This document shows positions 55,267 through 61,728 of a DNA stretch of 64,000 nucleotides, in pieces. A program made the translations under genes and the position numbers. The DNA comes from a virus, in IMG/VR virus record IMGVR_UViG_3300020578_000064, positions 1 to 64,000 of that record. One strand, 5' to 3'. Position 1 is the stretch's first letter. The number at the start of each line of letters is the position of its first letter. The notes beneath the pieces were generated by a model. It had not been told where the DNA came from and ran no database searches. It saw nothing but the letters and a program-made list of their open reading frames with translations.

Positions 55267-55457
55267 TGTCGTCGATCGTGCAGGTGATCCTCACGCGCCT
55301 CTCCGACGGCGCCGAGTTCGAGGGCATGGCGTGGTGCGACGGCGGCCGGTACGAGGCCATCTGGAACGAGAGCGGGCTCAGGCACGTCTTCCACTTCCGC
55401 GAGGACGGAAGGCAGATCGGCCAGAACAGGTACACGATGCGCCGCGCCGACACGTGA
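55266..55457 (+). CDS. Small hypothetical protein
   Basis: This 63-residue, beta-rich protein (QVILTRLSDGAEFEGMAWCD, then HVFHFREDGRQIGQNRYTM) has no recognised family. It overlaps the preceding stop. About 90 bases separate it from the porin, with no terminator seen. Confidence 0.55.
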   Translation: MSSIVQVILTRLSDGAEFEGMAWCDGGRYEAIWNESGLRHVFHFREDGRQIGQNRYTMRRADT

Positions 55458-55546
55458 ACCGGCACGCCGACGAGTCTACGCGGCCAGAATCGCTACAGAA
55501 TAGTGAAGATCCAAGCGGATCTCGACCAGTCAAAACACAGAACTTC

Positions 55547-56401
55547 ATGAAAGCAATCGCAACCGCCGCCCTGGCCGCCGCGACCCTGACCGCGCCCGCG
55601 ATGGCCCAGGTGACCAGCGTCGGCCAGCTGAGCGACGTCCAGCCCACCGAGTGGTCCTACCAGGCCGTGAGCAACCTGGTGAGCCGCTACGGCTGCGTCG
55701 CCGGCTTCCCCAACGGCACCTTCCAACCCGGCCAGCCCGCGACCCGCGCGCAGCTCGCCGCCCTGGTGAACGCCTGCGTCGACCGCATCTCCGAGTTCCA
55801 GGACGCCAAGGACGCCCAGCTCGCCGCGGCCCTGAAGGCACAGGCCGCCAAGTGGGACGGCACCGCGGCTAAGGTGAACGCCATCCAGGCCGGCATCGAC
55901 GCCAAGAACAACGGCGTGGGCAACTACCTCGGCCTCGGCGTCGCCCTGAACAAGCAGGGCGTGGACGGCGGCGGCTACGGCGCCGGCCGCACCATCTCCG
56001 GCGGCACCCTGCAGGCCCGCTACAAGGTGGCCAGCAAGCTCGGCGGCGACGTCTCGATCCGCCCCTACCTGAACGCCGCGGCCGGCCCCAACGGCAACAT
56101 CGGCACCGCCGGCGGCGCGCTCGTCTCCTACGACCGCAGCATCGCCAAGAAGGGCGGCGTGAGCTCCGCCAACATCTACGGCGGCGTCGGCTACCAGGTG
56201 CCCTTCGTGAACGGCTCGCAGGCCAACGAGCAATCGGCCATCGGCGACCGCGGCCAGGCGGTGTTCGTCCTCGGCGCCGAGGGCCGCATCACCAACTCCC
56301 TCGTGGGTTTCGCGGACCTGAAGTTCCCCACCACCAACGCGGGCGTCCAGGGCACCGCCTACAGCCCAGTATTCACCACCGGCCTCGGCTTCAAGTTCTG
56401 A
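55547..56401 (+). CDS. SLH-domain porin-like outer-membrane protein
   Basis: The start is ATG 55547, which gives a signal peptide MKAIATAALAAATLTAPAMA with cleavage after AMA. Residues 24-80 are an S-layer homology domain of the cyanobacterial porin type (LSDVQPTEWSYQAVSNLVSR, YGCVAGFPNGTFQPG, TRAQLAALVNACVDR). A short coiled coil follows and then about 160 residues of alternating beta strands ending in GLGFKF, a terminal Phe as in outer-membrane barrels. It is about half the length of host SomA/OprB porins. It may change permeability or mask receptors in the infected cell. Confidence 0.8.
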   Translation: MKAIATAALAAATLTAPAMAQVTSVGQLSDVQPTEWSYQAVSNLVSRYGCVAGFPNGTFQPGQPATRAQLAALVNACVDRISEFQDAKDAQLAAALKAQAAKWDGTAAKVNAIQAGIDAKNNGVGNYLGLGVALNKQGVDGGGYGAGRTISGGTLQARYKVASKLGGDVSIRPYLNAAAGPNGNIGTAGGALVSYDRSIAKKGGVSSANIYGGVGYQVPFVNGSQANEQSAIGDRGQAVFVLGAEGRITNSLVGFADLKFPTTNAGVQGTAYSPVFTTGLGFKF

Positions 56402-56670: not shown

Positions 56671-56865
56671 ATGACAGTAACGACCAACGACCGCGGGCAG
56701 CAGAACATGTGGGCGAAGGAGCCCACGATGTACTACGAGAACTACGGCATGCTGACCCCCAACGAGGTCAAGGAGCGCACCAACGGGCGCTGGGCCATGA
56801 TGGGCATCGTCGCCGGGGCGATCTCCTACGCGATCACCGGCAAACTCTTCTTCGGTATCTACTGA
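56671..56865 (+). CDS. hli: High-light-inducible protein 1
   Basis: This 64-residue protein is a single-helix chlorophyll-binding Hli: TPNEVKERTNGRWAMMGIVA, then GAISYAITGKLFFG. The E-x-x-NGR-x-AM-x-G motif binds chlorophyll and folds as a thylakoid-membrane helix that protects photosystems during infection. The N-terminal 30 residues carry an unusual MWAKEPTMYYENYG. Its own promoter region lies upstream after a terminator. Confidence 0.93.
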   Translation: MTVTTNDRGQQNMWAKEPTMYYENYGMLTPNEVKERTNGRWAMMGIVAGAISYAITGKLFFGIY

Positions 56866-57592: not shown

Positions 57593-58165
57593 ATGAACCT
57601 CTTCGTAGTCGATCGCGACCCGGTCAGGGCGGCAGAGTGCCTGCCCTCCAAGCTTGTGGTCAAGATGCCCCTGGAGACGTGCCAGATGCTGGCCGTCAAC
57701 ATGGGGCCTCTCTATCTCGACTGGGGGCAGCTCCGCCGGAAGGACGGCCTGCCGTACGGCCACAAGGGCTTCCGCAACCACCCGAGCACGGTGTGGGGGC
57801 GCGAGCGGCCCGAGAACGCGGCGTGGATGATAACTCACGGCCTCGCCCTCTGCGGCGAGTACCTCCGACGCTACGGGAAGCTCCACGCGTGCTTCGTCGG
57901 CCTGACCGACGCGAGGCGACTATTCGAGACGAACACGGGCCTCGCCCTCTCGGCGTGGCGCGAGGTGCAGACCTTCGCGCGGGCGATGCCGGAGGAGTTA
58001 AAGTTCGACCGCGCCATCGACGACGTGACTGCGTACCGTCGTTACGTAAATGGGCACAAGCACTACGCAGAGTGGAAACGCCGCCCGGAGGCCAAGCCCT
58101 CCTGGTGGGATGAAGAACTATTCTCCCGATGTCTATCACGGACCACCGCGACCCGTACAAGTTGA
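57593..58165 (+). CDS. Pyrimidine-dimer glycosylase-like protein (Pyr_excise family)
   Basis: In this 190-residue protein NLFVVDRDPVRAAECLPSKL, VVKMPLETCQML and then GFRNHPSTVWGRERPENAAW, CGEYLRRYGKLHACF follow the pattern of the T4 endonuclease V-type Pyr_excise family as it appears in cyanophages. It would remove UV-induced dimers, useful for a phage of sunlit water. The key residues of catalysis are not clearly placed, so activity is uncertain. It overlaps nrdB by 37 bases. Confidence 0.6.
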   Translation: MNLFVVDRDPVRAAECLPSKLVVKMPLETCQMLAVNMGPLYLDWGQLRRKDGLPYGHKGFRNHPSTVWGRERPENAAWMITHGLALCGEYLRRYGKLHACFVGLTDARRLFETNTGLALSAWREVQTFARAMPEELKFDRAIDDVTAYRRYVNGHKHYAEWKRRPEAKPSWWDEELFSRCLSRTTATRTS

Positions 58166-59106
58166 ACGGCTCGTTCGAGTACCCCGAGTACTACGAGCGC
58201 TTCCAGAAGGCCATAGCGTCCGTGTGGAGGCCCGAGGAGGTCTCCATGGCGCACGACGTCTACGACTGGCAGGAGGCCACGCCCGAGGAGAAGGCCGTCA
58301 TCGGCGGCATCCTCCGCGGCTTCACGCAGCTCGAGCTGCACGTCGCCTGCTACTGGGGCGACGTCATCACGAGGCTGTTCCCGAAGCACGAGGTCCACGC
58401 GATGGCGCGGGCCTTCAGCTCTAGCGAGGCCGTCCACGCCGCCGCCTACTCGCACCTGTCCGACACCCTCGGGCTCGACGAGTTCGAGGCCTTCCTCGGC
58501 GACCCCGCCGCGAGGGCGAAGATCGACTACTTCGTCAACCAGGCCGACCCCATCGTCTCGCTGGGCGTGTTCAGCGGCGCCGGCGAGGGCGTCAGCCTGT
58601 TCTCGTCGTTCGCGGCGCTTCTATCGTTCAATCTCGACGGGAGGTTCAAGGGTGTCGCGCAGATCATCTCGTGGTCGGCCCTCGACGAGCAGCAGCACTC
58701 CGACGGCGGGTGCTCCCTCTTCCGCGAGCTCGACCGCGAGGGCCGGGTCACCGCGGAGCAGAAGGCCGCCGTCGTGGCAGGATTTGAGGCGGTCCTCGCT
58801 AACGAGGACGCCTTCCTCAAGAAGATCTTCAACGGGTACCAGCTCAAATGTATCCATCGGGAAGACCTTTGGCATTATCTTCGCCACAGGGCTAATGACC
58901 GCCTTCGCCTGCTGGGCGTTGACCACTCCTTCGAATACGACCGAGCTAAGGCGGACAGCATCCGCCGCTGGTTCGAGCCGGTTCTGAAGGGGCAGGTGTC
59001 CAACGATTTCTTCGCCCTCCAGAAGGAGGGCAGCATGTACGTAGCAAAACCATCACAAGCGTTCGAGCGAGTCAATTGGAAGACACTGGATCTGGAGCTG
59101 GCGTGA
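58129..59106 (+). CDS. nrdB: Ribonucleotide reductase class I, beta subunit
   Basis: This 325-residue R2 protein has ligand motifs TQLELHVACYWG (first acidic ligand Glu), SSSEAVHAAAYSH (Glu, His and a Tyr four residues after His as the radical site), GAGEGVSLF (Glu) and LDEQQHSDGG (Glu, His). It makes the tyrosyl radical that NrdA uses. The C-terminus is WKTLDLELA, where the R2 tail docks to R1. A patch near 58.84-58.96 kb uses T/A-ending codons unlike its flanks. GTGA overlap with nrdA. Confidence 0.9.
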   Translation: MSITDHRDPYKLNGSFEYPEYYERFQKAIASVWRPEEVSMAHDVYDWQEATPEEKAVIGGILRGFTQLELHVACYWGDVITRLFPKHEVHAMARAFSSSEAVHAAAYSHLSDTLGLDEFEAFLGDPAARAKIDYFVNQADPIVSLGVFSGAGEGVSLFSSFAALLSFNLDGRFKGVAQIISWSALDEQQHSDGGCSLFRELDREGRVTAEQKAAVVAGFEAVLANEDAFLKKIFNGYQLKCIHREDLWHYLRHRANDRLRLLGVDHSFEYDRAKADSIRRWFEPVLKGQVSNDFFALQKEGSMYVAKPSQAFERVNWKTLDLELA

Positions 59107-61004
59107 TCGAGGCGCAGGTTCCCGAATGGCTGAACGAGGAGGGCCTCGAGACCCTCTCGCGAGGCTACCTCTACCAGGGCGAAACGCCGCGCGGCATGCA
59201 CCGCAGGCTCGCGTCCTACGCCGCCAAGATCCTCGACCGCCCCGACCTTGAGGCCGACTTCTTCGAGATCTTCTGGCGAGGCTGGCTCGGCCCCGCGACG
59301 CCTGTGGCGTCGAACTTCGGCACGAACCGCGGCCTGCCCATTTCCTGCTATTCGGTCCACCTCGGGGATAGTGTCAACTCCATCTACTCGCACCTCAAGG
59401 AGGTGGCCCAGCTCTCGAAGAATGGGGGCGGTGTGGGCGTCTATCTTGGCGACGTTCGCCCTAGTGGCAGCCCCATCAGCTCCGGAGGGAAGTCGACGGG
59501 CGTTGTCCCCTGGGCACAGCAGTACGATCTTGCGTCGCGTGTTGTCTCTCAGGGTGGCGTTCGGCGTGGCTCATTCGCGATCTACCTCCCGATAGACCAC
59601 CCCGACGTCCCCGAGCTGTTGCAGGCCAAGGACCACTCGAAGGGCGACCCGCGGCGCTTCATCGACTCGAACATCGGCCTGACGGTCACCGACGAGTGGA
59701 TCGAGTCCATGCTCGCCGGCGACGAGGGGAAGCAGGAGCTCTTCAGCGAGGTCCTGAAGACCCGCCTGATCAGCGGTTCGCCGTACATCGTCTACATCGA
59801 CAACGTCAACCGGCAGAACCCCGACTGCTACAAGCAGCGGGGGCTCGAGGTTTCGACGTCCAACCTCTGCAGCGAGATCACGCTGCACACCGACGACGAC
59901 CACACCTTCGTGTGCGTCCTGTCCTCACTCAACCTGGCGAAGTACGACGAATGGCGGGAATGGCGTGGTACGTCCTCTCTCAGCGTGCCGCAACTTTCGA
60001 TCTACTTCCTCGACGCGGTCGTCGGGGACTTCATCCACAAGGCGGGCCGCATCAGGAGCATGGGCCGGTCCGTCCGGTTCGCCAAGAAGTCCAGGGCACT
60101 TGGCCTGGGCACGATGGGCTTGCACTTGCTCTACCAGCGGCGTGGTCTGCCCTTCGCCTCCGACGGCGCCCGTGAGCTCAACGTCGAGGTCCACCGCTTC
60201 ATCAAGGAGGAGGCGGTCAAAGCCAGCCAGCAGCTGGCCAGGGACTTCGGCGAGCCCGAGTGGTGCGCCGGGTCCGGCATGCGCCACACCCACCTGCTCG
60301 CGGTGGCCCCGACGCGCACGAACTCCGTGATCAGCGGCGCGTTTTCACAGGGCATCGAGCCGATCGACGCGAACTACTTCGTGGCCAAGCAGGCCAAGGG
60401 CACGTTCGTCCGCAAGAACCCGATGCTCGAGGAGATCTTCTGCAGGAAGGGCATCAAGGAGACCGTCTGGGATCACATCCTCGAGGAGAAGGGCTCCGTC
60501 CAGAAGCTCGACTGCCTGACCGCCGAGGAGAAGGAGGTGTTCCGCACCGCCCGCGAGATCGACCAGTTCGAGATCGTGAAGCAGGCCGCGGACCGGACGC
60601 CGTACGTGTGCCAGGCCCAGTCGCTCAACCTGTTCGTCGACCCGGAGATCCCGGCCGAGGAGCTGGTCAGGCTGCACCTGGCCGCGTGGAAGAACGGTGT
60701 CAAGTCGCTGTACTACCTCCGGAGCACGTCGCTCGTGGCCAAGAAAGATTCGTCCGCGCCCCGGGCGAAGATAATCACCCGTGACGACTGTCCCTACTGC
60801 AAGAAGCTCAAGGCGCAACTCAAGAGAGACGGCGTCACCTACCACGAGATCGACAGGTCCGTGGTCGAGGAGTTCCCTTACAAGACCGTCCCCCAGGTGT
60901 GGGTCGACGGCGAGCACGTGGGCGGCTACACCGACTACATGCAGAGATTTCATGCTGACAACGGCTCCGGCGGCGAGAATGAGTGCAAAGCCTGTGAGGG
61001 GTAG
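59103..61004 (+). CDS. nrdA: Ribonucleotide reductase class I, alpha subunit fused to glutaredoxin
   Basis: The GTG at 59103 overlaps the nrdB stop. This 633-residue protein has active-site motifs PISCYSVHLGD, SNLCSEI, FVCVLSSLNLAKY and the YYLRS radical-transfer pair, so it reduces NDPs to dNDPs. From about residue 555 it carries a glutaredoxin fold: IITRDDCPYCKKLKAQLKRD (CPYC at 563-566), KTVPQVWVDGEHVGGYTDYM. The usual mobile redox tail ECKACEG (Cys628, Cys631) is kept after this domain, so the glutaredoxin sits between core and tail and could recharge it in cis. Confidence 0.9.
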   Translation: MIEAQVPEWLNEEGLETLSRGYLYQGETPRGMHRRLASYAAKILDRPDLEADFFEIFWRGWLGPATPVASNFGTNRGLPISCYSVHLGDSVNSIYSHLKEVAQLSKNGGGVGVYLGDVRPSGSPISSGGKSTGVVPWAQQYDLASRVVSQGGVRRGSFAIYLPIDHPDVPELLQAKDHSKGDPRRFIDSNIGLTVTDEWIESMLAGDEGKQELFSEVLKTRLISGSPYIVYIDNVNRQNPDCYKQRGLEVSTSNLCSEITLHTDDDHTFVCVLSSLNLAKYDEWREWRGTSSLSVPQLSIYFLDAVVGDFIHKAGRIRSMGRSVRFAKKSRALGLGTMGLHLLYQRRGLPFASDGARELNVEVHRFIKEEAVKASQQLARDFGEPEWCAGSGMRHTHLLAVAPTRTNSVISGAFSQGIEPIDANYFVAKQAKGTFVRKNPMLEEIFCRKGIKETVWDHILEEKGSVQKLDCLTAEEKEVFRTAREIDQFEIVKQAADRTPYVCQAQSLNLFVDPEIPAEELVRLHLAAWKNGVKSLYYLRSTSLVAKKDSSAPRAKIITRDDCPYCKKLKAQLKRDGVTYHEIDRSVVEEFPYKTVPQVWVDGEHVGGYTDYMQRFHADNGSGGENECKACEG

Positions 61005-61728
61005 GGGCTGGAAGCCGCTGAACAGGCGCATGGGCCTGCAGCCTGGCGACTCCCTGCCAGACCGTCGGAAGGACCGGCGCAAGAAGTACCCGCCGCTGAC
61101 CGCCGAGCAGCAGAGGCTGGTCGAGGAGCACCGCTGGATCGCGGGCCGCCTGGCCCACAGCGCGAAGGCGATGACCGGCGGCTACACCGGCTGCTTCTCG
61201 CGGCAGGATCTCGAGTCCGTGGCCTACTTCGCCCTGTGCGTGGCCGCGACCCGGTTCGACCCGTCGCTGGGCTGGAAGTTCAGCACGTTCGCGTGGAACA
61301 CCGCGCGCGGCTACATCCAGCACGCGCTCCGCGACCACAGCCGCATGGTCCGCGTCCCGCGCTGGATCATGCCGATCCGGGCGGAGGTGCGGCAGATGCT
61401 CGTCGACGGCTCGACCTACGACGAGATCGGCGAGGAGCTCGGCCTGACGCACCAGCAGGTGCTCATGTGCGAGGAGTCTTGGCAGGAGATCCACTCCTCC
61501 TACGACCACACACCCGACGAGTGGCGCCCGAAGGAGTTCATCTACGAGATCGACGAGGCCCGCGCCATGATCGGCGAGGAGGTGCTCCAGGCGCTAGGGA
61601 ACCTGCCCGACCAGGACCTCGAGCTGCTGCTCGCGCACGTCGAGGGCCTGCTCGAGGACGAGCGGGAGATCGCCAGGGCCGACGAGCTGCTCAAGTACCT
61701 GCGGGCGATCGTCGCCGAGCACGGGTAA
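60979..61728 (+). CDS. Sigma-70-family factor 2
   Basis: The ATG at 60979 lies 26 bases inside the nrdA end. This 249-residue protein has region-2 features SRQDLESVAYFALCVAATRF, DPSLGWKFSTFAWNTARGYI, QHALRDHSRMVRVPRWI and a helix-turn-helix TYDEIGEELGLTHQQVLMCE. It is a second sigma-like protein, distinct from that at 54362. The C-terminal 80 residues are acidic helix. It may act in a different stage of infection. Confidence 0.75.
   Translation: MSAKPVRGRGWKPLNRRMGLQPGDSLPDRRKDRRKKYPPLTAEQQRLVEEHRWIAGRLAHSAKAMTGGYTGCFSRQDLESVAYFALCVAATRFDPSLGWKFSTFAWNTARGYIQHALRDHSRMVRVPRWIMPIRAEVRQMLVDGSTYDEIGEELGLTHQQVLMCEESWQEIHSSYDHTPDEWRPKEFIYEIDEARAMIGEEVLQALGNLPDQDLELLLAHVEGLLEDEREIARADELLKYLRAIVAEHG

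What the first reader, a model, noticed from the sequence alone, without database searches (positions are those of the whole stretch)
59103..61004. NrdA with a glutaredoxin domain placed between catalytic core and redox tail
Seen: CPYC-type glutaredoxin sequence with VPQVWV and GGYTD follows the YYLRS core of NrdA, and the standard C-terminal ECKACEG comes after it. Known: NrdA tails are normally reduced by separate glutaredoxin or thioredoxin; a fused glutaredoxin has been described for the other subunit in a bacterial class I enzyme. Inference: a self-reducing enzyme that does not depend on host redox proteins.
Basis: partly seen in the sequence, partly recalled or inferred. Interest (0 to 1): 0.65.

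Follow-up and report, generated by a model that had tools for sequence, protein, structure and literature searches.

The report
Phage NrdA with built-in glutaredoxin
A cyanophage-like virus carries a ribonucleotide reductase (the enzyme that makes DNA building blocks) whose large subunit has a small reducing domain, a glutaredoxin, built in just ahead of the tail it would reduce; it is real, but the same fusion occurs in phage S-TIM5 and in more than a hundred other phage sequences, and a 2018 paper already mentioned such fusions in two viruses.

Summary
Confirmed. One intact frame (59103-61004, +; GTG start overlapping the nrdB stop as GTGA) encodes a class Id-like NrdA core (1-545), a complete minimal glutaredoxin (about 552-617; CPYC 563-566, TVPQ, GGYTD), a flexible linker and the tail ECKACEG. 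It is no frameshift or assembly error: the same architecture is in cyanophage S-TIM5 (67% identity, annotated only as NrdA), S-CBWM1, Kyanoviridae phage C48C1, Delftia phage PhiW-14, two Acinetobacter phages and more than a hundred distinct fetched sequences. All 116 distinct C-termini keep both the CPxC and the C-terminal CxxC. In all five complete fused genomes searched, the fused copy is the only glutaredoxin. Trees of the NrdA core separate two fused clades with different insertion points, so insertion probably happened at least twice; other phages keep grx as the next gene or fuse it to NrdB. Most likely the domain passes electrons from glutathione to the redox tail, replacing the host glutaredoxin/thioredoxin step but still needing host glutathione and NADPH. 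No activity was tested. Rozman Grinberg et al. [quoted passage not shown] New member of a known kind.

The parts
58129..59106 (+). nrdB, class I radical subunit (325 aa); its stop TGA overlaps the nrdA start (GTGA)
   Evidence: PF00268 E=1.3e-46; nearest solved relatives include 9dws and F. johnsoniae-type NrdB 6cwo; six ligand positions E69, E100, H103, E153, E187, H190 and Y107 read off that alignment
59103..61004 (+). nrdA-grx fusion gene, 633 aa, GTG start
   Evidence: open frame; Pfam/NCBIfam
59103..60737 (+). NrdA catalytic core (residues 1-545), catalytic cysteines C82, C256, C271 and Y537/Y538; no ATP-cone
   Evidence: PF00317 + PF02867; 6dqw class Id alpha, 41% identity, TM 0.96 by target; residues invariant in 40 sequences; numbering
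60729..60755 (+). flexible linker 1 (residues 543-551)
   Evidence: pLDDT <50 in the model
60756..60953 (+). glutaredoxin domain (residues 552-617), CPYC 563-566, TVPQ, GGYTD
   Evidence: PF00462; isolated model pLDDT 94, top PDB matches glutaredoxins
60954..60983 (+). flexible linker 2 (about residues 618-627), variable in length and sequence
   Evidence: pLDDT <50 from residue 619; alignments
60984..61001 (+). C-terminal redox tail CKACEG, C628/C631
   Evidence: CxxC kept in 116 of 116 distinct fused C-termini

Best explanation
A phage class Id-like NrdA in which a GSH-type dithiol glutaredoxin has been inserted into the flexible linker between the catalytic barrel and the C-terminal CxxC tail. 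After each turnover the tail (C628/C631) reduces the active-site disulfide (C82-C271), probably in the partner subunit of the dimer; the oxidised tail is then reduced by the tethered Grx (C563/C566) of the same or the neighbouring chain, and the Grx is recharged by host glutathione. Shown here: gene, domains, conserved cysteines, predicted folds, distribution, purifying selection, absence of another Grx in complete fused genomes. Inferred: electron route, cis versus trans, GSH as donor.
For: Domain hits and models. CP[WFYSH]C, [TS]VPQ and tail CxxC kept in 116/116 distinct fused C-termini while the linkers vary. Grx dN/dS 0.29 against 0.14 for the core, window against L002. The only PF00462 match in S-TIM5, S-CBWM1, C48C1, PhiW-14 and nACB2 is the fused one. 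Relatives without the fusion often carry grx as the next gene, so the two functions are linked. A Grx fused to NrdB of Facklamia ignava is an efficient RNR reductant with GSH (PMC6187632).
Against: No activity data. S-TIM5 also carries a thioredoxin-like gene, so another reductant may act there. The Grx diverges faster than the core and lacks most of helix 2, so weak or altered activity is possible. The window's record is a 65.7 kb fragment, so absence of another redoxin in this phage is not shown.
Confidence: 0.8

Rival explanations
1. The Grx domain is retained mainly for a structural or other redox role (deglutathionylation, oligomer control, NrdB binding) and the tail is reduced by host or phage thioredoxin.
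For: S-TIM5 has a Trx-like gene; some unfused relatives (Mx1, immuto, phi14:2) have no PF00462 match at all, so a phage Grx is not obligatory.
Against: Invariant CPxC together with an invariant tail; S-CBWM1, C48C1 and PhiW-14 have no Pfam thioredoxin hit (nACB2 not tested).
Confidence: 0.12
2. The domain has lost activity and is a fusion relic.
For: It evolves about twice as fast as the core and its second helix is shortened.
Against: dN/dS 0.29; active-site, cis-Pro and GG motifs kept across 116 distinct sequences.
Confidence: 0.04
3. Frameshift, chimera or assembly artefact joining nrdA and a neighbouring grx.
For: In several phages grx is the gene directly after nrdA.
Against: Same architecture in isolates and more than a hundred independent contigs, with the redox tail after the Grx.
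Confidence: 0.005

Closest known systems
Cyanophage S-TIM5 NrdA (AEZ65724; JQ245707/NC_019516)
   Same: Same order barrel-Grx-CxxC tail, 67% identity over 99% of length; nrdB upstream
   Different: The record says only 'NrdA'; an HNH endonuclease gene and small genes lie between nrdB and nrdA
Synechococcus phage S-CBWM1 NrdA (ATW62835)
   Same: Same fusion; nrdB and nrdA overlap by four bases; cyanophage
   Different: Carries an intein in NrdA; about 58% identity
C48C1 / Delftia PhiW-14 / Acinetobacter nACB2 NrdA-Grx group
   Same: Grx inserted before the CxxC tail
   Different: About 36% identity for the C48C1-like members; Grx about 10 residues further from the barrel, in a different linker; nrdA precedes nrdB; separate place in the tree
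Grx-NrdB fusions (Facklamia ignava, Francisella, Vibrio phages)
   Same: Grx covalently part of the class I RNR holoenzyme; shown to reduce RNR in F. ignava (PMC6187632)
   Different: Grx sits on the radical subunit (N-terminal, or C-terminal in Vibrio phage helene), not inside the catalytic subunit
Class Id NrdA of Flavobacterium johnsoniae (6dqw)
   Same: Minimal NrdA without ATP-cone, 41% identity
   Different: No Grx domain

Membership tests
Class I RNR catalytic subunit (NrdA), class Id-like | Barrel fold with C225/C439/C462 equivalents and YY pair | tested here: met
   C82, C256, C271, Y537, Y538 invariant in 40 sequences; fold match 6dqw
Class I RNR catalytic subunit (NrdA), class Id-like | C-terminal CxxC tail | tested here: met
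   C628/C631
Class I RNR catalytic subunit (NrdA), class Id-like | Partner NrdB with dimetal ligand set and Mn cofactor | tested here: inconclusive
   Ligand positions present by alignment with 6cwo; metal not testable. S-TIM5 is placed in subclass Id by PMC6370689
Dithiol glutaredoxin (GSH type) | CPxC, TVP cis-Pro, GG motif and thioredoxin fold | tested here: met
Dithiol glutaredoxin (GSH type) | GSH-dependent reductase activity | not testable with these tools
   needs biochemistry
grx::nrdA fusions (Rozman Grinberg 2018) | Grx and NrdA in one polypeptide in a virus | tested here: met
   their Table S1, which names the two viruses, could not be read

The most novel reading that the evidence does not exclude
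Aquatic and other phages repeatedly and independently built the RNR reductant into the holoenzyme, inserting Grx into the NrdA tail linker at least twice and in one lineage having it on NrdB instead, giving an RNR that reduces itself using glutathione alone.
Probability: 0.5. Interest if true: 0.55.

Novelty: new member of a known kind. Interest (0 to 1): 0.38.

Why it matters
It shows a common phage solution to supplying electrons for DNA precursor synthesis with fewer host proteins, and offers a single-chain system in which the two late disulfide exchanges of RNR can be studied with fixed stoichiometry. The records label these genes only 'NrdA', so the feature is easily missed.

Tried and rejected
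Assembly or frameshift artefact: rejected (many independent copies). A single origin of all fusions: holding fused NrdA cores as one clade is rejected (AU p about 1e-55), though the tree has long branches, and one gain with several losses is not excluded by counting alone. Bacterial chromosomal copies: the single genome-contig scan gave only two MAG contigs with the same 73% match, probably phage DNA binned by mistake; that scan used narrow patterns and does not exclude others. Literature: no paper found in the library describing this NrdA insertion beyond one phrase in PMC6187632; supplements and the S-TIM5 paper were not readable.

Full report
Observation. The frame 59103-61004 (+) is open and encodes 633 aa. 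It begins with a GTG that overlaps the nrdB stop as GTGA, with GGAG just upstream, which suggests translational coupling. Pfam finds the NrdA all-alpha domain and barrel and, at 557-606, a glutaredoxin domain well over its cut-off. The tail ECKACEG follows after a short linker.

Structure. An AlphaFold2 model of the whole chain from 40 sequences has mean pLDDT 88.5; the barrel and the Grx are confident, and residues 543-551 and 619-633 are of very low confidence, as flexible segments usually are. The core matches class Id NrdA of Flavobacterium johnsoniae (6dqw, 41% identity). The Grx alone folds at pLDDT 94 and its best matches in the PDB are glutaredoxins (Francisella Grx1, cGrx2, Synechocystis GrxA, E. 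coli Grx3). It is a minimal Grx in which the second helix is very short. The position between two flexible linkers would let the tail visit both the Grx active site and the NrdA active site; this is inference, and no distances were measured.

Distribution. The closest named relative is cyanophage S-TIM5 (67% identity over 99%). The fusion is also in S-CBWM1, C48C1, PhiW-14 and Acinetobacter phages nACB2 and SH-Ab 15599. Scans of IMG/VR brought in more; one search counted 153 fused and 23 unfused NrdA with complete C-termini, a sample biased by searching with fused queries. After removing duplicates, 116 distinct fused C-termini all keep CPxC, [TS]VPQ and the tail CxxC. Two MAG contigs carry it too, probably misbinned phage.

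Redoxin context. In five complete fused genomes (S-TIM5, S-CBWM1, C48C1, PhiW-14, nACB2) the fused domain is the only PF00462 match. S-TIM5 has one thioredoxin-like hit; S-CBWM1, C48C1 and PhiW-14 have none. Unfused relatives show the alternatives: no Grx at all (Mx1, immuto, phi14:2), grx as the next gene (Phosso, SCTP-2, Atu_ph07, Atu_ph04, Vibrio 1.193.O, the L090 group), or Grx fused to NrdB (L103; Vibrio phage helene).

Evolution. Trees of the NrdA core (Grx excluded) put the window with S-TIM5 and S-CBWM1, and C48C1, PhiW-14 and the Acinetobacter phages in another group, with unfused lineages between; one fused clade is rejected. The distance from the YY pair to CPxC is 20-30 residues in a first set of proteins, to which the window and S-TIM5 belong, and 33-35 in the rest, C48C1-like, and the second group's linker is shared with unfused relatives. 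At least two insertions is the simplest reading. Within the second group L103/L113 lack the NrdA insertion; L103 has Grx on NrdB, which looks like a move or a replacement. Root and long branches leave the exact history open.

Selection. Against L002 the Grx has dN/dS 0.29 and the core 0.14; other pairs are saturated at synonymous sites.

Literature. Rozman Grinberg et al. [quoted passage not shown] ignava drives RNR with GSH. PMC6370689 places the S-TIM5 RNR in subclass Id. A 2022 survey of RNR insertions and extensions (PMC9669993) does not contain the word glutaredoxin in its main text.

Mechanism. From established knowledge of class I RNR, the C-terminal cysteine pair re-reduces the active-site pair after each turnover and is itself reduced by Grx or Trx. 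Here the Grx is tethered next to that pair at a 1:1 ratio. The likely gain is that reduction no longer depends on the concentration of host Grx/Trx, which matters when a phage pushes dNTP synthesis in a cell whose own RNR (class II in marine Synechococcus and Prochlorococcus hosts, PMC6370689) is a different kind. Host glutathione and glutathione reductase would still be needed. All of this is inference from sequence.

Verdict. Real, functional-looking and widespread in phages; already known in kind.

Noticed in passing
56671-56865 (+): High-light-inducible protein gene (PHROG 178, E=1e-27), a cyanophage marker; window GC is about 66%, high for a cyanophage, suggesting a high-GC Synechococcus/Cyanobium-like host.
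   Followed up: partly
61029-61728 (+): ORF after nrdA reads like a sigma-70-type factor by eye but has no Pfam or PHROG hit; S-CBWM1 has a sigma factor gene with Pfam support at the same place.
   Followed up: partly
57593-58165 (+): Pyrimidine dimer DNA glycosylase-like gene (PF03013) just upstream of nrdB.
   Followed up: no
55331-56401 (+): S-layer homology domain protein, resembling cyanobacterial porins by eye; unusual cargo for a phage.
   Followed up: no
L103 3001-4290: Grx fused to the N-terminus of NrdB in a lineage nested among NrdA-Grx fusions: the Grx appears to have changed subunit.
   Followed up: partly
L027, L205, L206: Inteins inside the fused NrdA of S-CBWM1 and of Acinetobacter phages nACB2 and SH-Ab 15599 (the SH-Ab 15599 hit is below the Pfam cut-off).
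   Followed up: no
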